NCBI GenBank assembly: GCA_030446715.1
Contig: JAUJMU010000008.1
Coordinates: 1-64,000, forward strand
DNA length: 64,000 nucleotides
Direction: 5' to 3'
From: Cytophagales bacterium
GTDB taxonomy: Bacteria; Bacteroidota; Bacteroidia; Cytophagales; 172606-1
The notes under the pieces are model-generated. The model worked only from the letters and a program-made list of their open reading frames with translations, did not search any database and had not been told where the DNA came from. Position numbers and translations under genes: made by a program. Positions 3,915 to 53,453 of the stretch are shown here, in pieces; the first letter of the stretch is position 1, and every line of letters begins with the position of its first letter.

Positions 3915-4406
3915 ATGGAAATAAAATTTGAGGAAATCAGGGATCAGGACCTGCCCGAAGTGAAAAAAATCTACGACTGGTACGTTGCCAATTCGACGGC
4001 GACGTTTCACACCGGGCCCGTCTCCGTTGACCAGCTGAAGGAGTTTCTTTATACCGCACACCCCGTGTACAAGTCATACCTGATCTTTGCCCACACGGAT
4101 ATCGCCGGGTACTGCTTCCTGACGTACCACAAAAAGCGGCAGGCCTACGACCGGACTGCCGAGGTGACCGTTTACCTGAAGCCTGAATTCTGCAAAAAAG
4201 GCATCGGGCAGGTTGCGCTTGGCTGGCTGGAGAAAAAAGCCAGCGGAAGCGGCTTGAAAAATCTGATCGGAACCATTTCCGGGGACAATGAGGGAAGCAT
4301 CGCCCTGTTTCAGAAAGCGGGTTTTACCAAATGCGCGCATTTCAAAAATGTGGGTGAAAAGTTTGGCAAAGTGCTGGATGTAGTCTCTTTCCAGAAGGAA
4401 ATATAG
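3915..4406 (+). CDS. GNAT N-acetyltransferase, phosphinothricin acetyltransferase-like
   Basis: The ATG at 3915 gives MEIKFEEIRDQDLPEVKKIY, the standard start of this family; the longer frame from 3825 adds an unconserved leader. The product has 163 residues with the GNAT layout: YDWYVANSTATFHT (as in the PAT/MddA group), a central beta strand with GYCFLTYHKKRQAYDRTAEVTVYL, the acetyl-CoA loop FCKKGIGQVAL (relaxed Q-x-x-G-x-G/A) and SIALFQKAGFTKCAHFKNVG. Relatives acetylate phosphinothricin or methionine sulfone and sulfoximine. The true substrate is unknown. It converges with fabF, separated by only about 10 bp. Confidence 0.85.
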   Translation: MEIKFEEIRDQDLPEVKKIYDWYVANSTATFHTGPVSVDQLKEFLYTAHPVYKSYLIFAHTDIAGYCFLTYHKKRQAYDRTAEVTVYLKPEFCKKGIGQVALGWLEKKASGSGLKNLIGTISGDNEGSIALFQKAGFTKCAHFKNVGEKFGKVLDVVSFQKEI

Positions 4407-44906: not shown

Positions 44907-44939
44907 CTTGCGCTGTATTGTTCCTTTTTTGCACCTTTG
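44907..44939 (+). promoter_or_regulatory. Bacteroidota-type promoter for a small RNA
   Basis: CTTG at 44907-44910 and CACCTTTG at 44932-44939 with 21 bases between, close to the TTTG/TAnnTTTG type used by Bacteroidota housekeeping sigma. It is followed by a structured segment and a terminator but no convincing ORF. Confidence 0.5.
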
Positions 44940-44944
44940 CTTCC

Positions 44945-45157
44945 GTTAAGACCAACGCAATGTCACACATTCAACACATATCCATTCTCGTAAGCTTCCG
45001 GCTAGCGGTACCAGCCGTGATCGCGAGGAGTATGGATATGGCGTACAATGAGTCAGATAAAGGCAATAAGCGTTATTTCCACAATTATGGGTCGGGTATG
45101 AGATAGTTTCTGCAGTACTATCCTATACGAAGACCCAACTAAAAGTTGGGTTTTTTT
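44945..45157 (+). ncRNA. Putative structured small RNA 1 upstream of the tRNA array
   Basis: The segment is flanked by a promoter-like sequence and a strong terminator. It contains a long stem: CATATCCAT (44977-44985) pairs perfectly with ATGGATATG (45032-45040), continued by CTCG/CGAG and an inner hairpin CGGCT (44999-45003)/AGCCG (45013-45017). A second small hairpin (GATAGT/ACTATC) lies near 45102-45122. A 62-codon open frame overlaps it but shows no protein-like features. I do not recognise an RNA family. Position suggests a link to the tRNA/repair locus. Confidence 0.5.
45133..45157 (+). terminator. Rho-independent terminator of small RNA 1
   Basis: ACCCAACT and AGTTGGGT form an 8-bp stem with an AAA loop, followed by seven T. 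Confidence 0.85.
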
Positions 45158-45259
45158 GTTTTCATACTTCCCCATATTCCGTATTCATTTCAGATAAAAT
45201 GAGCCGTGGCTTCTATGGAAGATCATGTAAGATTTGCTATGTTTTTTAACTTTTTTCCT

Positions 45260-45442
45260 GCGTGTTACCGGCAGGATACCGGGAGGAGTATGTCCATTCT
45301 TCTGGGAAACGAAACCATAAAATACGGAGTCATCAGCCGGGAGGGTAAAAACGATCCTTACGGTTCCGGGCGATCATGTAGCTAGTGTATCTATACTGCT
45401 ACCTGTGGAAGGCCCGACGGACAATCGGGCCTTTTTATTTTA
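45260..45442 (+). ncRNA. Putative structured small RNA 2 upstream of the tRNA array
   Basis: A second segment ends in a strong terminator with no ORF before it. It contains the hairpin GTAGC (45378-45382)/GCTAC (45398-45402), extended by AGT/ACT. The 5' end is a guess; an AT-rich TAACTTTT stretch near 45247-45254 could be part of a promoter. GGAGGAGTATG is shared in part with small RNA 1 (45024-45034). No family is recognised. Confidence 0.35.
45409..45442 (+). terminator. Rho-independent terminator of small RNA 2
   Basis: AAGGCCCGA and TCGGGCCTT form a perfect 9-bp stem with a 7-nt loop, followed by TTTATTTT. It lies 48 bp before the first tRNA of the array. Confidence 0.85.
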
Positions 45443-45489: not shown

Positions 45490-45564
45490 GGTGCGTAGGG
45501 CTGATGGCTAGGCCGCTTCCCTGTCACGGAAATATTCAAGCGGGTTCGACTCCCGTACGCACCG
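45490..45564 (+). tRNA. tRNA-Asp(GUC), divergent
   Basis: Acceptor GGTGCGT/ACGCACC is perfect. D-stem is GGCT/GGCC. The anticodon loop CTGTCAC gives GTC (45523-45525). The anticodon stem has 4 of 5 pairs (C-A at the end), the variable loop is 7 nt instead of 5, and the T-arm is GCGGG-TTCGACT-CCCGT. CCA is not encoded. It is first in the array. Confidence 0.8.
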
Positions 45565-45567
45565 CAG

Positions 45568-45655
45568 AGAGGGTTGTCAGAGTGGTTTATTGAGCCTCTT
45601 TGCTAAAGAGGAAGGCGTCACTGCCTCGCAGGTTCGAACCCTGCACCCTCTGCCA
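45568..45655 (+). tRNA. tRNA-Ser(GCU)
   Basis: A class II tRNA. Acceptor AGAGGGT/ACCCTCT is perfect, the anticodon stem CCTCT/AGAGG encloses TTGCTAA (anticodon GCT at 45602-45604), a long variable arm is built on AGGC/GCCT, and the T-arm is GCAGG-TTCGAAC-CCTGC. Discriminator G is followed by an encoded CCA. It looks functional. It starts only 3 bp after the previous tRNA. Confidence 0.92.
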
Positions 45656-45658
45656 TAC

Positions 45659-45730
45659 GTCGGCATAGCTCAATGGCGGAGCAATCGGCTGTTAACCGAT
45701 AGGCTGCAGGTTCGAGTCCTGCTGCCGACG
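45659..45730 (+). tRNA. tRNA-Asn(GUU)
   Basis: Acceptor GTCGGCA/TGCCGAC, D-arm GCTC-AATGGCG-GAGC, anticodon arm ATCGG-CTGTTAA-CCGAT (GTT at 45691-45693) and T-arm GCAGG-TTCGAGT-CCTGC are all perfect. CCA is not encoded. It starts 4 bp after tRNA-Ser. Confidence 0.93.
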
Positions 45731-45748
45731 CAAAATGATTACCCAAAT

Positions 45749-45821
45749 GGGGTGCAAGCTAACCTGGTGGAAGCGCCGCTCTGAAGAAGCGGAGGGTGTG
45801 GATCGTAACCACAGTTTTCCG
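45749..45821 (+). tRNA. tRNA-Phe(GAA)-like, degenerate
   Basis: The anticodon arm CCGCT-CTGAAGA-AGCGG is perfect (GAA at 45783-45785) and the T-stem TGTGG/CCACA is perfect, but the T-loop is ATCGTAA instead of TTCRANY. The acceptor GGGGTGC/GTTTTCC has three true pairs, three G-U and one U-U mismatch. The D-stem has 3 pairs. It may be a decaying or specialised tRNA. Confidence 0.65.
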
Positions 45822-45841
45822 CAAGAAACAACGCTGATTAC

Positions 45842-45925
45842 TGTGTGATAGTCCGTAAGTGGAAGCGGGCCGGTCTGTAAAACCGGAGCCTTCGGGCCCT
45901 GGAAGTTCGATTCTTCCTCACACAA
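45842..45925 (+). tRNA. tRNA-Tyr(GUA)
   Basis: A class II tRNA as expected for bacterial Tyr. Acceptor TGTGTGA/TCACACA, anticodon arm CCGGT-CTGTAAA-ACCGG (GTA at 45877-45879), a variable hairpin GCC-TTCG-GGC and T-arm GGAAG-TTCGATT-CTTCC. The D-loop is long (about 12 nt). CCA is not encoded. Confidence 0.9.
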
Positions 45926-45971
45926 CAAATAACAATAAACCATGGATCGAATAAGGAGAATACGACACCCT

Positions 45972-46044
45972 ACACCCGTAGCTCAGCGGTGAGAGCAGCA
46001 CTCTTATAAGGTGCAGGTAGTTGGTTCGACTCCAACCGGGTGTA
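45972..46044 (+). tRNA. tRNA-Ile(UAU)
   Basis: Acceptor ACACCCG/CGGGTGT, D-arm GCTC-AGCGGTGA-GAGC, anticodon arm GCACT-CTTATAA-GGTGC (TAT at 46005-46007, one G-U) and T-arm GTTGG-TTCGACT-CCAAC are well formed. UAU is rare among bacteria, which usually read AUA with a lysidine-modified CAU tRNA. Confidence 0.85.
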
Positions 46045-46054
46045 CGCAACCAGC

Positions 46055-46130
46055 GCACCCGTAGTTCAACTGGAAGAACAGCTTCGTTCTAAGGAGTTTG
46101 CTGCAAGTTCGAGTCTTGCCGGGTGCACCA
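46055..46130 (+). tRNA. tRNA-Arg(UCU)
   Basis: Acceptor GCACCCG/CGGGTGC, D-stem GTTC/GAAC, anticodon loop GTTCTAA (TCT at 46088-46090) on a stem with two G-U pairs, T-arm GCAAG-TTCGAGT-CTTGC. Discriminator A is followed by an encoded CCA. It starts 10 bp after the previous tRNA. Confidence 0.88.
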
Positions 46131-46213
46131 GAAACAGACTATAGCCAAATCATCAGAAGAAATAAATACGCAATCACAGGAATAATGAAACCAGGAGATA
46201 AACGGTATTTTTT

Positions 46214-46285
46214 GCGCCTGTAGCTCAACGGCAGAGCTACTCACTCTTAATGAGAAGGTTGGGGGTTCGATTCCCTCCAGGCGCA
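46214..46285 (+). tRNA. tRNA-Lys(CUU)
   Basis: Acceptor GCGCCTG/CAGGCGC, D-arm GCTC-AACGGCA-GAGC, anticodon loop CTCTTAA (CTT at 46246-46248) with an A-A mismatch at the base of the stem ACTCA/TGAGA, T-arm GGGGG-TTCGATT-CCCTC. CCA is not encoded. Confidence 0.88.
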
Positions 46286-46302
46286 CGCTTATCATTGCAT
46301 AA

Positions 46303-46374
46303 GCGCTTGTAGCTCAGAGGCAGAGCACCTGACTTTTGATCAGGGGGCCGGGATTTCGAAATTCCCCGGGCGCA
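46303..46374 (+). tRNA. tRNA-Lys(UUU)-like with an altered T-arm
   Basis: Acceptor GCGCTTG/CGGGCGC has two G-U pairs. D-arm GCTC/GAGC and anticodon stem CCTGA/TCAGG are perfect. The loop CTTTTGA gives TTT (46335-46337) with G at position 37; a Gln(UUG) reading would need a shifted loop. The T-stem GGGAT/TTCCC ends in a T-T mismatch where the conserved G53-C61 pair should be. Confidence 0.7.
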
Positions 46375-46382
46375 CTTAAAAG

Positions 46383-46456
46383 TCATAAGTGGTAAGTCGT
46401 AAGTGGGAGGTTATAACACACTGTGTTTTGCTTACGACTAACCACTTACCACTAAA
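46383..46456. repeat. Inverted repeat between tRNA genes
   Basis: AAGTGGTAAGTCGTAAG near the left end is matched by CTTACGACTAACCACTT near the right end, differing by one base. Related GTGGTTAG-type repeats lie at 47101-47204 in the same array. Confidence 0.55.
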
Positions 46457-46458
46457 AC

Positions 46459-46540
46459 TGCGGAATGTCAGAAGCTGGTATCTGGGCGGTCTCATAAGCT
46501 GCTGCCTCGGGCCTCGCGGGTTCGAATCCCGCTTCCGCAA
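46459..46540 (+). tRNA. Class II tRNA with CAU anticodon
   Basis: Acceptor TGCGGAA/TTCCGCA, D-stem TCAG/CTGG with GG in the loop, anticodon arm GCGGT-CTCATAA-GCTGC (CAT at 46493-46495), T-arm GCGGG-TTCGAAT-CCCGC. The 13-nt variable region with a GCC/GGC stem makes it class II, a form normally limited to Leu, Ser and Tyr, whereas CAU belongs to Met or Ile2. The charging amino acid is uncertain. Confidence 0.75.
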
Positions 46541-46617
46541 CCTGAAGACGATAACCCAAAACCGAAACAAACATGAATCCGTCAATCAACACAGCTTCCG
46601 AAGACGGGGAGATACAG

Positions 46618-46690
46618 GCTCCCGTTGACAAGTGGTCCAAGTCAACCGGCTTTCTACCGGTCACCGCGGGTTCGAATCCCGCCGGGAGTA
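46618..46690 (+). tRNA. tRNA-Glu(UUC)
   Basis: Acceptor GCTCCCG/CGGGAGT (one G-U), D-stem GAC/GTC, anticodon arm ACCGG-CTTTCTA-CCGGT (TTC at 46652-46654) and T-arm GCGGG-TTCGAAT-CCCGC. T at position 37 is unusual, since a purine is expected. CCA is not encoded. Confidence 0.82.
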
Positions 46691-46886
46691 CAGAGGAGTT
46701 GCAGAACTTCCACCCAGACCAGCAGCTAATCGGCTCCGAAAACCCGCAGCCTGCAACTGTTTTTTCAAAGGCCAAAAGCTATTCAGGCTCTTTTGGCAAT
46801 CTATTACTGATAGCCTGGGGCGAAGCGTACCATCCGTCGCACCCCAAAAGTAAGCGGAAGGAGTGAAGCCCCGTCCGCAGCCTGAT

Positions 46887-46962
46887 TGTCCGGTAGCTCA
46901 GTTGGTTTAGCAGCGCCCCGCTTACAACGGGGAGGTCGGGGGTTCGAATCCCTCCCGGACAA
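46887..46962 (+). tRNA. tRNA-Val(UAC)
   Basis: Acceptor TGTCCGG/CCGGACA, anticodon arm CCCCG-CTTACAA-CGGGG (TAC at 46923-46925) and T-arm GGGGG-TTCGAAT-CCCTC. The D-arm is loosened to a 3-bp GCT/AGC stem with a 13-nt loop. The 197-bp gap before it holds short hairpins but no recognisable T-arm. Confidence 0.85.
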
Positions 46963-46977
46963 CCGCATCTGGTCCAT

Positions 46978-47052
46978 TGTCCCGTAGCTCAGGGGTAGAG
47001 CAGTGCTCTGATACGGCAAAGGCCGCTGGTTCAAATCCAGCCGGGACAACCA
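46978..47052 (+). tRNA. tRNA-Ile(GAU)
   Basis: Acceptor TGTCCCG/CGGGACA, D-arm GCTC-AGGGGTA-GAGC, loop CTGATAC (GAT at 47010-47012) on a stem with 4 of 5 pairs, T-arm GCTGG-TTCAAAT-CCAGC. Discriminator A is followed by an encoded CCA. Confidence 0.85.
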
Positions 47053-47092: not shown

Positions 47093-47220
47093 CACAGCAG
47101 AAAAGTGATAAGCGACAGGTGGTTAGCGATAGGTGGCTAGTGTAGTAGGTTGATTCACAGCCTTTCACTTTCAACTTATCACTAACCACTTGCCGCTAAA
47201 AATACAGGTATTCATCCAAC

Positions 47221-47326
47221 TCTGATTGGCACATTGGATAGTGCAGCGGTGATAATGGGAGGATGCTTCCGTGGCCCACAGCCTCCCTGGAACGGGCTAA
47301 GGTGGGTTCGAGACCCACTACCGGAG
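47221..47326 (+). tRNA. tRNA-like element with an irregular middle
   Basis: A perfect T-arm GTGGG-TTCGAGA-CCCAC (47302-47318) and a D-arm-like CAC-ATTGGATA-GTG (47230-47243) are present. TCTGATT/TACCGGA could form a weak acceptor (5 of 7). The section between them is too long and offers competing hairpins (GGGAGG/CCTCCC; ATGGGAG/CTTCCGT) instead of one anticodon arm. No anticodon can be assigned. Confidence 0.4.
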
Positions 47327-47341
47327 CAAAAGGATGAATGC

Positions 47342-48604: not shown

Positions 48605-49405
48605 ATGAAATTCACCCAACTTGAAAGTCAGATGCGGTTCTATGAAACCGCTCTTGACCAGTTCGTGCCGCCGGATATGTTCATCGTCGCCCGGATGGAC
48701 GGCCGTGGCTTTACCCGGCTGACTAAGGAAACATTAGATCTGGAAAAGCCATTTGACGTTCGGTTCCGCGATGCTATGGCGGCTGCGGTAATGCATCTGA
48801 TGCAGGGTGGCGCTAATATAACCTATGGATATGTACAGAGTGACGAAATATCTCTGCTTTTTCACCGTGATGATCAGTCCTTCAACCGGAAACACCGCAA
48901 ATTGCTGTCAATACTTGCCGGAGAAGCCAGTGCCGCTTTTACTTATTCCATTGGCCATATGGGGGCGTTTGATTGTCGGTTATGCCTGCTTCCCAACGAA
49001 GAAAAGGCGGCTGATTATTTCAGCTGGCGGGCCGAAGACGCCCACCGCAATTCTTTGAGCGCCTGGTGCTATTGGAAGCTCAGGGAAAGTGGCAAGTCAG
49101 CCGGGGAAGCGACCAAAGGAGTGGAGGGGCTTTCCGTGGGCGAGAAGAATCAGTTGCTCTTTGATCTGGAGATCAACTATAATGACCTCCCGGCATGGCA
49201 GAAGCGGGGCATTGGATTTTACTGGAACCAGAGTATCCAAAGAGGATTTAATCCGGTAAAGCGAGAAGAGACTCCGGTTGTCCGGCGGATCCTGAAACAG
49301 GAGAATGAACTGCCGCTGAGTGGCTACCGGGAAATGATTGTTGAACTGATCCGGTCCTCACTGGAGGAGAAGAAAACAACCGGAGAAGCAATGAAAATAC
49401 CCTGA
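48605..49405 (+). CDS. Thg1-like tRNA(His) guanylyltransferase / 3'-5' RNA polymerase
   Basis: 266 residues, full family length. Thg1 enzymes add nucleotides to the 5' end of tRNA in the 3'-5' direction. The catalytic metal residues are visible: D32 in ARMDGRGFTRLT, and D80/E81 in YVQSDEISLLF. The signature RAEDAHRNSLSAWCYWKLRE (about 140-159) is present, plus the family C-terminal region with NDLPAWQKRGIGFYW and a PVVRRILK segment. Bacterial Thg1-like proteins repair 5'-truncated tRNAs, which fits the adjacent Hen1/Pnkp genes. It is 55 bp from hen1. Confidence 0.92.
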   Translation: MKFTQLESQMRFYETALDQFVPPDMFIVARMDGRGFTRLTKETLDLEKPFDVRFRDAMAAAVMHLMQGGANITYGYVQSDEISLLFHRDDQSFNRKHRKLLSILAGEASAAFTYSIGHMGAFDCRLCLLPNEEKAADYFSWRAEDAHRNSLSAWCYWKLRESGKSAGEATKGVEGLSVGEKNQLLFDLEINYNDLPAWQKRGIGFYWNQSIQRGFNPVKREETPVVRRILKQENELPLSGYREMIVELIRSSLEEKKTTGEAMKIP

Positions 49406-50876: not shown

Positions 50877-53453
50877 ATGCAAATTCAAATACCTGATTTA
50901 TCGCTGGTGATACTGATCGGGGCTTCCGGCTCCGGCAAGTCTACCTTTGCCCGCAAACATTTCAAGCCCACCGAAATTGTGTCTTCGGATGCCTGCCGGG
51001 CCATAGTATCCGACGACGAAAACAACCAGGCGGCCAGCGGCGATGCTTTCGAACTCCTGCACTTTATCGTGGCCAAGCGCCTGAAGCGCGGGCTGCTTAC
51101 GGTAGTAGACGCCACCAACGTGCAGGAAGAAAGCCGCAAAGCCCTGCTCGAACTGGCGCGCACCTACCACTGCCTGCCCGTGGCAATAGTGCTCGACATT
51201 TCCGAACGGATCTGTCAGGACCGCAACGATCTCCGGCCCGACCGCAACTTCGGACGGCATGTGATTGTCCAGCACCGGTCGCAGCTGAAGCGTTCGCTCA
51301 AAAACCTGAAGCGGGAAGGCTTCCGGCATATTTTCGTGCTGCAGTCAGCGGAAGAAATGGATGCGGTGGAGGCCGTGGTGCGTCATCCGCTCTACAACAA
51401 CCTGACGCACCTTACAGGTCCGTTTGACATCATCGGCGACGTGCACGGCTGCTACGAAGAATTGACCCAACTGCTCGGAAAGCTGGGTTACCAGATCCGC
51501 TCCGTGCCCGGAACGCCCGAAAACTTTGGCGTGGAAGTGGTGCCGCTACCGGGCCGCACCGCGGTATTCCTCGGCGACCTCGTGGACCGAGGACCCGATT
51601 CGCCTGCGGTACTCAAACTGGTAATGAGCATGACCCGTGCCGGAACGGCGCTCTGCGTGCCCGGCAACCACGACGCCAAACTGCTCCGCAAGCTGAACGG
51701 CAAAGACGTGCAGCTCAAACACGGTCTGAGCCAGACACTGGAGCAACTGGCCGGCGAACCGGGTGAATTCATGGGCCAGCTCCGGACTTTTCTGGACAAA
51801 CTTGTGAGCCATTACGTGCTGGACGGTGGCACACTGGTGGTGGCCCACGCCGGCCTGAAGGAAGAAATGCAGGGCCGCGGTTCGGGAGCCGTACGGGCTT
51901 TTTGCCTTTACGGTGAAACCACCGGGGAAACCGACGAATTCGGCCTGCCGGTGCGTTACAACTGGGCCGCTGACTACCGGGGCCGGGCAATGGTGGTGTA
52001 CGGCCATACCCCCGTGCCCCGGCCCGAGTGGCTCAACGGCACCATTGACATTGATACCGGCTGCGTGTTTGGGGGCTCCCTCACGGCGCTGCGGTACCCC
52101 GAGCATGAACTGGTCAGCGTGCCGGCTGCTAAAATGCACTACGAGCCGGCCCGACCCCTGAATTATTTCAAGGAAGTGGAGAGCGGCCTCACCGCGCAGC
52201 AGCAGAGTGACGACCTGCTGGATATTGACGAAGTGCTGGGCCGCCGGATCATTGCCACCGGACTGGCCCACAACGTCACCATCCGGGAGGAAAACGCGGC
52301 GACGGCCCTCGAAATCATGAGCCGGTTTGCGGTGAATCCGCGTTGGCTGATTTACCTCTCGCCGACCATGTCGCCGTCCGAAACCAGCCGGCTGCCCGGT
52401 TACCTGGAGCACCCGGCCGAGGCGCTGGGATACTACGCGGCGCAGGGAGTGTCCAAAGTAGTGTGTGAGGAAAAGCACATGGGGTCAAGGGCCATTGTAG
52501 TGGTATGCCGCAATTTGGAGGCGGCACAGACCCGGTTCGGCGTGCAGGGAGAAGGCATCGGCATCTGCTACACGCGTACCGGCCGGAGTTTCTTTACGGA
52601 CCGGGAGCTGGAAAAGGCGTTTCTGGAACGGGTGCGGCAATGCCTGGAGGCAACCGGTTTCTGGGAAAAGTTCACGACTGACTGGGTGTGCCTGGACTGC
52701 GAACTGATGCCGTGGTCGGCCAAGGCGCAGGCGCTGCTGGAGAACCAGTACGCCGCCGTGGGCTCCGCGGCCAGAGCGGCTTTGCCCGCCGTAATGACTG
52801 CCCTGGAAAAGGCCGGCAGTCAGGGACTCGCAGTAGATACGCTCCTGAGTGAATACGAAAGCCGCAAGGACATGGCGCTGCACTTTACCGACGCCTACCG
52901 CCGGTACTGCTGGCCGGTACATTCACTGGATGACTACCGGCTGGCGCCTTTCCACATTCTGGCCACCGAAGGGGCCGTGCACACAGACAAGGATCACGTC
53001 TGGCACATGGAGAACATCCGGGAAATCTGCGCAGGCGATCCGCAGCTTTTTACTGCCACGCCCTGGCGGGTAGTGGACCTTGCCAATGAGCAGGAGCGGG
53101 AAGCTGCAATACAGTGGTGGACGGAACTGACGGAAAAGGGCGGCGAGGGCATGGTGATCAAGCCGCTGGAGTACATCACCCGCGGCCGGAAGGGACTCGT
53201 GCAGCCGGCCGTGAAGTGCCGGGGCCGGGAATACCTGCGCATCATCTACGGACCCGAGTACACGCTGCCCCACAACCTGGAGCGGCTGCGCAACCGCGGT
53301 TTGGGTGCCAAGCGTTCACTGGCGCTGCGGGAGTTTGCCCTCGGTGTGGAAGGCCTGGAGCGGTTTGTCCGGAAAGAGCCGCTGCGCAAAGTGCATGAAT
53401 GTGTATTCGGCGTGCTGGCACTCGAAAGCGAGCCGCTGGACCCGAGGCTGTAG
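50877..53453 (+). CDS. pnkp: Polynucleotide kinase-phosphatase-ligase Pnkp
   Basis: 858 residues with all three modules. Kinase: P-loop GASGSGKST (15-23). Metallophosphatase: GDVHGCYEEL (D188, H190), GDLVDRGPDS (D234) and GNHDAKLL (N264, H265). Ligase: nucleophilic Lys533 in CEEKHMGSRAIVV, WVCLDCELMPWSAK, and EGMVIKPLEY near the C-terminus. Pnkp phosphorylates 5'-OH ends, removes 2',3'-cyclic phosphate and, with Hen1, seals the RNA. It is the known partner of bacterial Hen1 for repairing tRNAs cut by ribotoxins. A terminator follows after 160 bp. Confidence 0.97.
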   Translation: MQIQIPDLSLVILIGASGSGKSTFARKHFKPTEIVSSDACRAIVSDDENNQAASGDAFELLHFIVAKRLKRGLLTVVDATNVQEESRKALLELARTYHCLPVAIVLDISERICQDRNDLRPDRNFGRHVIVQHRSQLKRSLKNLKREGFRHIFVLQSAEEMDAVEAVVRHPLYNNLTHLTGPFDIIGDVHGCYEELTQLLGKLGYQIRSVPGTPENFGVEVVPLPGRTAVFLGDLVDRGPDSPAVLKLVMSMTRAGTALCVPGNHDAKLLRKLNGKDVQLKHGLSQTLEQLAGEPGEFMGQLRTFLDKLVSHYVLDGGTLVVAHAGLKEEMQGRGSGAVRAFCLYGETTGETDEFGLPVRYNWAADYRGRAMVVYGHTPVPRPEWLNGTIDIDTGCVFGGSLTALRYPEHELVSVPAAKMHYEPARPLNYFKEVESGLTAQQQSDDLLDIDEVLGRRIIATGLAHNVTIREENAATALEIMSRFAVNPRWLIYLSPTMSPSETSRLPGYLEHPAEALGYYAAQGVSKVVCEEKHMGSRAIVVVCRNLEAAQTRFGVQGEGIGICYTRTGRSFFTDRELEKAFLERVRQCLEATGFWEKFTTDWVCLDCELMPWSAKAQALLENQYAAVGSAARAALPAVMTALEKAGSQGLAVDTLLSEYESRKDMALHFTDAYRRYCWPVHSLDDYRLAPFHILATEGAVHTDKDHVWHMENIREICAGDPQLFTATPWRVVDLANEQEREAAIQWWTELTEKGGEGMVIKPLEYITRGRKGLVQPAVKCRGREYLRIIYGPEYTLPHNLERLRNRGLGAKRSLALREFALGVEGLERFVRKEPLRKVHECVFGVLALESEPLDPRL

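What the first reader, a model, noticed from the sequence alone, without database searches (positions are those of the whole stretch)
46459..46540. Class II tRNA carrying a CAU anticodon
The long variable arm marks a Leu/Ser/Tyr-type tRNA, but the loop CTCATAA gives CAU, normally Met or lysidine-modified Ile2. All other arms are well paired. It could insert Leu or Ser at AUG, serve as a bait for nucleases that cut initiator tRNA, or read AUA after modification.
Basis: seen in the sequence. Interest (0 to 1): 0.75.

Follow-up and report, generated by a model that had tools for sequence, protein, structure and literature searches.

The report
Long-armed methionine tRNA beside repair genes
A bacterial tRNA with the methionine anticodon has the long side arm normally seen only on leucine, serine and tyrosine tRNAs; it belongs to a previously unremarked family, common in phage tRNA arrays, that resembles the start tRNA and here sits beside RNA-repair enzymes, suggesting a spare tRNA that keeps translation going when normal tRNAs are cut.

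Summary
Window 46459-46540 is a tRNA (Rfam 39.8 bits) with loop CTCATAA (CAU) and a 13-nt variable region. It is conserved in 8 of 390 genomes of the order, always with CAU and a long variable arm; across 6 distinct sequences all 22 pairs hold, 5 with double changes.

By covariance score the nearest ordinary host tRNA is initiator tRNA-fMet, then Tyr; Leu and Ser are far. A pattern scan of viral contigs gave 75-78 distinct long-armed CAU tRNAs, 47% with an unpaired 1-72 position (other phage tRNAs 1.4%, p~3e-31), the hallmark recognised by formyltransferase. In phage arrays covering all 20 amino acids it can be the only CAU tRNA, alongside Ile(UAU): this leaves methionine. The window copy lies in a 13-tRNA array upstream of RlaP-Thg1-Hen1-Pnkp; some relatives lie beside Ro60, RtcB, RNA ligases.

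Best reading: a phage-type, initiator-derived class II tRNA-Met that supplements tRNAs damaged by ribotoxins. Met identity is well supported; initiator versus elongator use, and nuclease resistance, are inference. I found no description of it in the open literature searched.

The parts
46459..46540 (+). class II tRNA with CAU anticodon (anticodon 46493-46495; variable region 46503-46515; A73 at 46540)
   Evidence: ARAGORN, Rfam 39.8 bits, covariation in 7 homologues, model R1 103.9 bits
45490..47052 (+). array of 13 tRNA genes: Asp, Ser(GCU), Asn, Phe, Tyr, Ile(UAU), Arg(UCU), Lys(CUU), Lys(UUU), CAU, Glu(UUC), Val(UAC), Ile(GAU)
   Evidence: ARAGORN, Rfam; all but Lys(CUU) and Ile(UAU) duplicate anticodons found elsewhere in the genome
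47432..48550 (+). RlaP-type nucleotidyltransferase (RNA repair, Pol beta family)
   Evidence: Pfam PF10127 7.6e-25; PHROG 388 nucleotidyltransferase 5e-54
48605..49405 (+). Thg1-like 3'-5' nucleotidyltransferase
   Evidence: Pfam PF04446 1.7e-31, PF14413
49460..50851 (+). Hen1 RNA 2'-O-methyltransferase with Hen1_L domain
   Evidence: Pfam PF12623 5.1e-116
50877..53453 (+). Pnkp: kinase, phosphatase, RNA ligase in one chain
   Evidence: Pfam PF16542 3.6e-187, PF13671, PF00149
46381..46453 (.). inverted repeat (23-nt arms, 87% complementary) directly upstream of the CAU tRNA; a related copy at 47175-47201
   Evidence: the repeat finder I1, D8
47229..47327 (+). conserved tRNA-like stretch with a T-arm between array and RlaP, function unknown
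   Evidence: 96% identical in G001; T-arm-only match to R1; fold z=-1.7

Best explanation
The gene is a member of a phage-borne family of class II tRNA-Met whose acceptor and anticodon arm descend from, or converge on, initiator tRNA-fMet. Shown here: it is a conserved, structurally constrained tRNA; its anticodon loop stays CAU; its relatives are enriched for initiator hallmarks; it lives in redundant tRNA arrays, in several lineages beside RNA-repair genes. Inferred: MetRS charges it with methionine (the CAU anticodon is the main determinant, with A73), and it serves as a spare Met or initiator tRNA, made together with repair enzymes when ribotoxins or anticodon nucleases have cut the normal pool. 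The long arm and altered body would make it a poor substrate for nucleases or toxins that recognise the standard initiator. Whether it initiates, elongates or both is open; I put initiator or dual use slightly ahead.
For: Structure and conservation. Closest ordinary body is fMet: model R1 gives host fMet 59.8 bits, array Tyr 54.8, host Tyr 51.7, Leu 42, Ser 41, while host elongator Met (L023) and Ile2 (L004) did not appear; the listed next-best matches in other genomes are mostly 73-nt, fMet-length genes at 55-61 bits. Initiator hallmarks in the viral family: unpaired 1-72 in 35/75 against 11/760 other tRNAs parsed the same way in the same contigs (Fisher 2.7e-31); 1-72 is G-C in only 1 of 68 members with the initiator-type acceptor, G30-C40 in 66/68, A73 in 58/68; members such as L252, L211, L163 have GGG:CCC and A11:U24. 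These are the published initiator and formyltransferase elements (PMC4611024, PMC9976931). Met identity: 24 of 39 viral loci with 10 or more tRNAs have it as the only CAU tRNA; L178, L227, L243 cover 20 amino acids and carry Ile(UAU); a CAU anticodon alone lets E. coli MetRS charge tRNA-Val normally (PMC9976931). Context: RlaP-Thg1-Hen1-Pnkp here; Ro60, two RNA ligases, Macro, Thg1, RtcB in G003; RtcB and an AlkB-like oxygenase in G097; Ro60 and RNA ligase in G059. The jumbo-phage review proposes tRNAs and RNA repair as joint answers to tRNA cutting (PMC7824862).
Against: The window copy itself has a U1-A72 pair (weak, not a mismatch) and G.U/U.G at 29-41 and 31-39 instead of GGG:CCC. R11:Y24 depends on reading the D stem as 3 bp with a 3-nt linker. 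Some arrays (L147, L197, G027) hold both a class II CAU and a class I initiator-like tRNA, so the class II one may be an elongator there. In G001 and G030 no RNA-repair gene was recognised near the array. No expression, charging or toxin data exist.
Confidence: 0.5

Rival explanations
1. A methionine elongator only: a class II tRNA-Met that reads internal AUG codons from a redundant array, with initiator resemblance being ancestry without function.
For: Window copy has a paired 1-72 and lacks GGG:CCC; a few arrays carry a separate class I initiator-like CAU tRNA.
Against: 1-72 unpaired in 47% of viral relatives; more partner CAU tRNAs in shared loci are elongator/Ile2-like than initiator-like.
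Confidence: 0.22
2. Bait: an uncharged or charged mimic of the initiator anticodon arm that soaks up VapC-like or other nucleases, sparing tRNA-fMet, with the neighbouring repair enzymes resealing it.
For: Identical loop CTCATAA to the host fMet; beside RNA-repair genes.
Against: Acceptor stem, T arm and discriminator are conserved with compensatory changes, which a loop bait would not need; sole CAU tRNA in complete phage sets.
Confidence: 0.1
3. A tRNA-Ile2: C34 is changed to lysidine by TilS and it reads AUA.
For: Loop CTCATAA is shared by Ile2.
Against: Ile(UAU) is in the same array and in 8 of the 24 loci where it is sole CAU; acceptor G4-C69, G5-C68 like fMet; host Ile2 does not match model R1.
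Confidence: 0.06
4. A misreading tRNA: Leu, Ser or Tyr is put in at AUG.
For: Class II arm; Tyr is the second closest body; two viral members (L218, L244) do have a Leu-type body with CAU.
Against: A73 is against Ser, G15-C48 against Leu, U1-A72 and CAU against Tyr; such a tRNA would be damaging and would not be the only CAU tRNA of a full set.
Confidence: 0.05
5. A relic of a phage tRNA array with no present function.
For: Patchy distribution, 8 of 390 genomes in the order, none but the own genome in a 395-genome phylum sample.
Against: Compensatory changes and an intact cloverleaf over four genera, always in arrays with other intact tRNAs.
Confidence: 0.07

Closest known systems
Bacterial initiator tRNA-fMet
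   Same: CAU in loop CTCATAA, G2-C71, C3-G70, G4-C69, weak 1-72, R11:Y24 (3-bp D-stem register), G30-C40, A73; best covariance score among host tRNAs
   Different: 13-nt class II variable arm, 3-nt linker before the D stem, U1-A72 paired and no GGG:CCC in the window copy
Bacterial tRNA-Tyr
   Same: short class II arm (host Tyr TGCGAAAGCTTC against relative G030 TGCGAAAGCCTC), G15-C48, A73; second best score
   Different: anticodon CAU not GUA, U1-A72 not G1-C72
Long-armed tRNAs of other isotypes in phages (e.g. phiCbK tRNA-Lys CUU/UUU; XacN1 Lys, Gly, Thr, Cys, Asn)
   Same: class II arm on isotypes that are class I elsewhere, in phage arrays; XacN1 also has Pnkp, Hen1 and Thg1 genes
   Different: other anticodons; annotated in the records without comment on the arm
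Jumbo-phage tRNA arrays with RNA repair (PMC7824862)
   Same: array of redundant tRNAs with RlaP, Thg1, RNA ligases, TROVE
   Different: the window is a bacterial chromosome with SusCD/TonB neighbours and no phage structural genes recognised nearby
allo-tRNAs and selC* tRNAs (PMC7609411)
   Same: natural tRNAs with unexpected long arms
   Different: those have longer acceptor stems and other anticodons; this one is 7/5

Membership tests
tRNA (Rfam RF00005) | covariance-model score above gathering cut-off | tested here: met
   39.8 against 29 bits
class II tRNA | variable region of 10 nt or more with a hairpin | tested here: met
   13 nt here, 12-14 in bacterial homologues, 2-3 bp
initiator tRNA-fMet | no Watson-Crick pair at 1-72 | tested here: not met
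   window U1-A72; unpaired in 35/75 viral relatives
initiator tRNA-fMet | three G-C pairs 29-31/39-41 | tested here: not met
   window G.U, G-C, U.G; present in some relatives (L252, L211, L163)
initiator tRNA-fMet | R11:Y24 in the D stem | tested here: inconclusive
   A11:U24 if the D stem is 3 bp with a 3-nt linker; other register gives C11:G24
initiator tRNA-fMet | formylation, IF2 and P-site binding | not testable with these tools
   needs biochemistry
tRNA-Met (MetRS identity) | CAU anticodon and A73 | tested here: met
   sequence; anticodon invariant in homologues
tRNA-Leu | A15-U48 as in host Leu, longer arm, Leu D loop | tested here: not met
   G15-C48; Leu scores 42 bits or less
tRNA-Ser | G73 and long paired arm | tested here: not met
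   A73, 2-3 bp arm
tRNA-Tyr | GUA anticodon and G1-C72 | tested here: not met
   CAU, U1-A72
tRNA-Ile2 | lysidine at C34 | not testable with these tools
   indirect evidence against: Ile(UAU) in the same array
allo-tRNA / tRNA-Sec | acceptor stem longer than 7 bp (8/5 or 9/3 type) | tested here: not met
   7/5 branch
Pnkp/Hen1 RNA-repair system (neighbouring genes) | Pnkp with ligase domain plus Hen1 with Hen1_L domain | tested here: met
   PF16542, PF12623

The most novel reading that the evidence does not exclude
There is a widespread, undescribed class of initiator tRNAs with a long variable arm, carried by phages and by bacterial RNA-repair islands, that starts or sustains translation when the standard initiator has been cut or modified by defence nucleases and toxins; it is one case of a general conversion of phage tRNAs, mostly those with U36, from class I to class II to escape tRNA-targeting defence.
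Probability: 0.3. Interest if true: 0.87.

Novelty: new variant of a known kind. Interest (0 to 1): 0.72.

Why it matters
Class II architecture is taught as the mark of Leu, Ser, Tyr (and Sec) tRNAs. A conserved CAU tRNA with a long arm and initiator-like acceptor breaks that rule in many phages and in bacterial chromosomes, and it is simply labelled tRNA-Met by gene finders. It gives a direct test of why phages carry tRNAs: whether a re-shaped initiator resists ribotoxins such as VapC. It also shows that redundant tRNA arrays and RNA-repair operons occur together in bacteria, as they do in jumbo phages, and offers a new scaffold for engineered initiator tRNAs.

Tried and rejected
Annotation offset or pseudogene: rejected by covariation. 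Y RNA (YrlA has a tRNA-like domain and lives in Ro60 operons): YrlA matches here lie below gathering score and overlap other tRNAs, not this one. Universal link of Hen1/Pnkp with tRNA arrays: rejected; 20 Hen1 loci from other genomes have no array within the fetched flanks (up to 10 kb), apart from a single tRNA-Leu in L041, so the linkage is lineage-specific. Prophage origin of the island: neighbours are SusCD, TonB and sugar enzymes, no phage structural genes. Known phage isolates with the same CAU tRNA: BLAST found none, only class I Met or class II Lys; BLAST is weak for tRNAs, so absence is not shown. First alignment A1 mixed strands and was discarded for A2. First hallmark comparison was biased by its parser and was replaced.

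Full report
Check of the observation. The window holds 13 tRNA genes at 45490-47052, all on the + strand. The tenth, 46459-46540, has anticodon CAT and a 13-nt variable region; Rfam's tRNA model scores it 39.8 bits. Its arms are TGCGGAA/TTCCGCA, CAG/CTG, GCGGT/GCTGC and GCGGG/CCCGC, loop CTCATAA, discriminator A.

It is conserved. A search of 98 relatives with the tRNA alone found full-length homologues in G001, G003, G005, G030, G059 and G097 at 76-88% identity; all have a CAU anticodon, a 12-14-nt variable region, and all lie in tRNA arrays. Over the alignment every one of 22 pairs is kept in every sequence, with 11 double-changed cells; slid controls pair 37-53%. A covariance model from these (R1) finds the family in 8 of 390 genomes of the order above 90 bits, with nothing listed between 61 and 91 bits; a pattern independent of most of the body finds the same 8 genomes and no others. 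A phylum sample of 395 gave only the own genome. A further, divergent class II CAU tRNA lies in an array of G027. G001 appears to be the public assembly of an uncultured Cytophagales bacterium (AVDCRST_MAG56): its contig C684 has the same number, length and gene matches as CADCTQ010000684.1.

What body is it? R1 against the host's own tRNAs gives fMet 59.8, array Tyr 54.8, host Tyr 51.7, Leu 42, Ser 41 bits; elongator Met and Ile2 did not appear, although they share the CAU loop (default filters can lose weak matches). So the acceptor and anticodon arm look like initiator tRNA, the variable arm like Tyr. In the next genomes down the list the best hit is again mostly a 73-nt gene at 55-61 bits; in the own genome this is fMet (C2:97849), elsewhere I infer it from length and score.

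Phages. Pattern scans of IMG/VR found this tRNA type in viral contigs, including one of 203 kb. The closest viral copies are 80-83% identical to the window (L147, L148, L149, L203). In a parse applied equally to all tRNAs of these contigs, position 1-72 is unpaired in 35 of 75 class II CAU tRNAs, 11 of 760 non-CAU tRNAs, and 36% of class I CAU tRNAs, some of which are ordinary initiators (sequences are related, so the p-value of 2.7e-31 overstates independence). Of 68 with an initiator-type acceptor, one has G1-C72; G30-C40 is kept in 66. Published initiator elements are the missing 1-72 pair and A11:U24 for formyltransferase and the three G-C pairs for the P site, with 29-41 and 30-40 contacting 16S rRNA (PMC4611024; PMC9976931). 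Single viral members (L252, L211, L163) have the three G-C pairs and A11:U24 together with a long arm. The window copy is a derived member: weak U1-A72, U31.G39. Minor groups have other bodies, among them two Leu-type (L218, L244), so the CAU/long-arm combination probably arose more than once.

Amino acid. In 39 viral loci with at least 10 tRNAs and a class II CAU, it is the only CAU tRNA found in 24, and 8 of these also have Ile(UAU). L178, L227 and L243 have 31-32 tRNAs for all 20 amino acids. The open slot is methionine. (Loci are contig pieces, so further tRNAs may lie outside.) The window array likewise has Ile(UAU) and Ile(GAU). CAU is the main MetRS determinant: a tRNA-Val with CAU is charged like tRNA-Met (PMC9976931).

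Neighbourhood. Directly downstream of the array are RlaP, Thg1, Hen1 and Pnkp. In G003 the homologous tRNA lies among Ro60, two RNA ligases, a Macro protein, Thg1, RtcB and an ADP-ribosylglycohydrolase; in G097 next to RtcB and a 2OG-Fe(II) oxygenase; in G059 near Ro60, a 2OG-Fe(II) oxygenase and an RNA ligase. In G001 and G030 I recognised no repair gene near the array, and 20 Hen1 loci of other bacteria lack arrays. The link is recurrent but not obligatory, and its chance expectation was not computed. Nearly all array anticodons have a second, ordinary gene elsewhere in the host genome, so the array is a spare set. Jumbo phages are thought to use tRNAs and repair enzymes jointly against tRNA cutting (PMC7824862); XacN1 carries Pnkp, Hen1, Thg1 and an array with class II Lys, Gly, Thr, Cys and Asn tRNAs.

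Mechanism, with status of each step: working conserved tRNA (shown by sequence constraint); methionine identity (well supported, not measured); initiator ancestry (supported by hallmarks of the family); use in initiation (inferred); protection from ribotoxins by an altered body (inferred); co-use with the repair operon (inferred from position).

Novelty. Literature searches found no account of a class II tRNA with CAU or of class II initiator tRNA; only open-licence papers were searched. The review of non-canonical tRNAs does not mention it in the passages found. I rate it a new variant of a known kind.

Noticed in passing
viral loci L147-L274: Long variable arms also occur on other isotypes that read ANN codons: Ile(UAU) 13/20, Asn(GUU) 9/46, Thr(UGU) 6/34, Lys(UUU) 3/30; 32/232 for U36 tRNAs against 12/424 for the rest (p=2.5e-7, related sequences).
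   Followed up: partly
L245, L234, L183, L175, L173, L238, L178, L215, L189, L227: Class II Ile(UAU) tRNAs of phages share a recurrent arm loop CAGATTA or close variants (NAGATNA), which looks like a conserved motif.
   Followed up: no
L277 (phiCbK, JX163858) 3974-4157; L275 (DSS3P8) 205-291, 3987-4074; L287 (XacN1): Cultivated phages carry class II Lys, Ala, Gly, Thr, Cys and Asn tRNAs.
   Followed up: partly
L116 9561-10331 (G000:C10): A second array of the same host: Leu(UAG) with a short class I arm, Arg(UCG), Arg(GCG), His, Gln, Pro, all reading C-starting codons and complementing the window array; transposase genes beside it.
   Followed up: partly
45749-45822: Array tRNA-Phe has an atypical T loop ATCGTAA and an imperfect acceptor stem; same in G001.
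   Followed up: no
47229-47327: Stretch 96% identical in G001, more conserved than the tRNAs, with a T-arm-like hairpin, between the array and RlaP; not a recognised RNA family.
   Followed up: partly
44930-45160 and 45260-45440: Two apparent small transcripts ending in terminator-like hairpins plus T runs upstream of the array, read from the sequence only.
   Followed up: no
46381-46453 and 47100-47201: Related inverted repeats (AAGTGGTAAGTCGTAAG type), possibly a small mobile or REP-like element inside the array.
   Followed up: no
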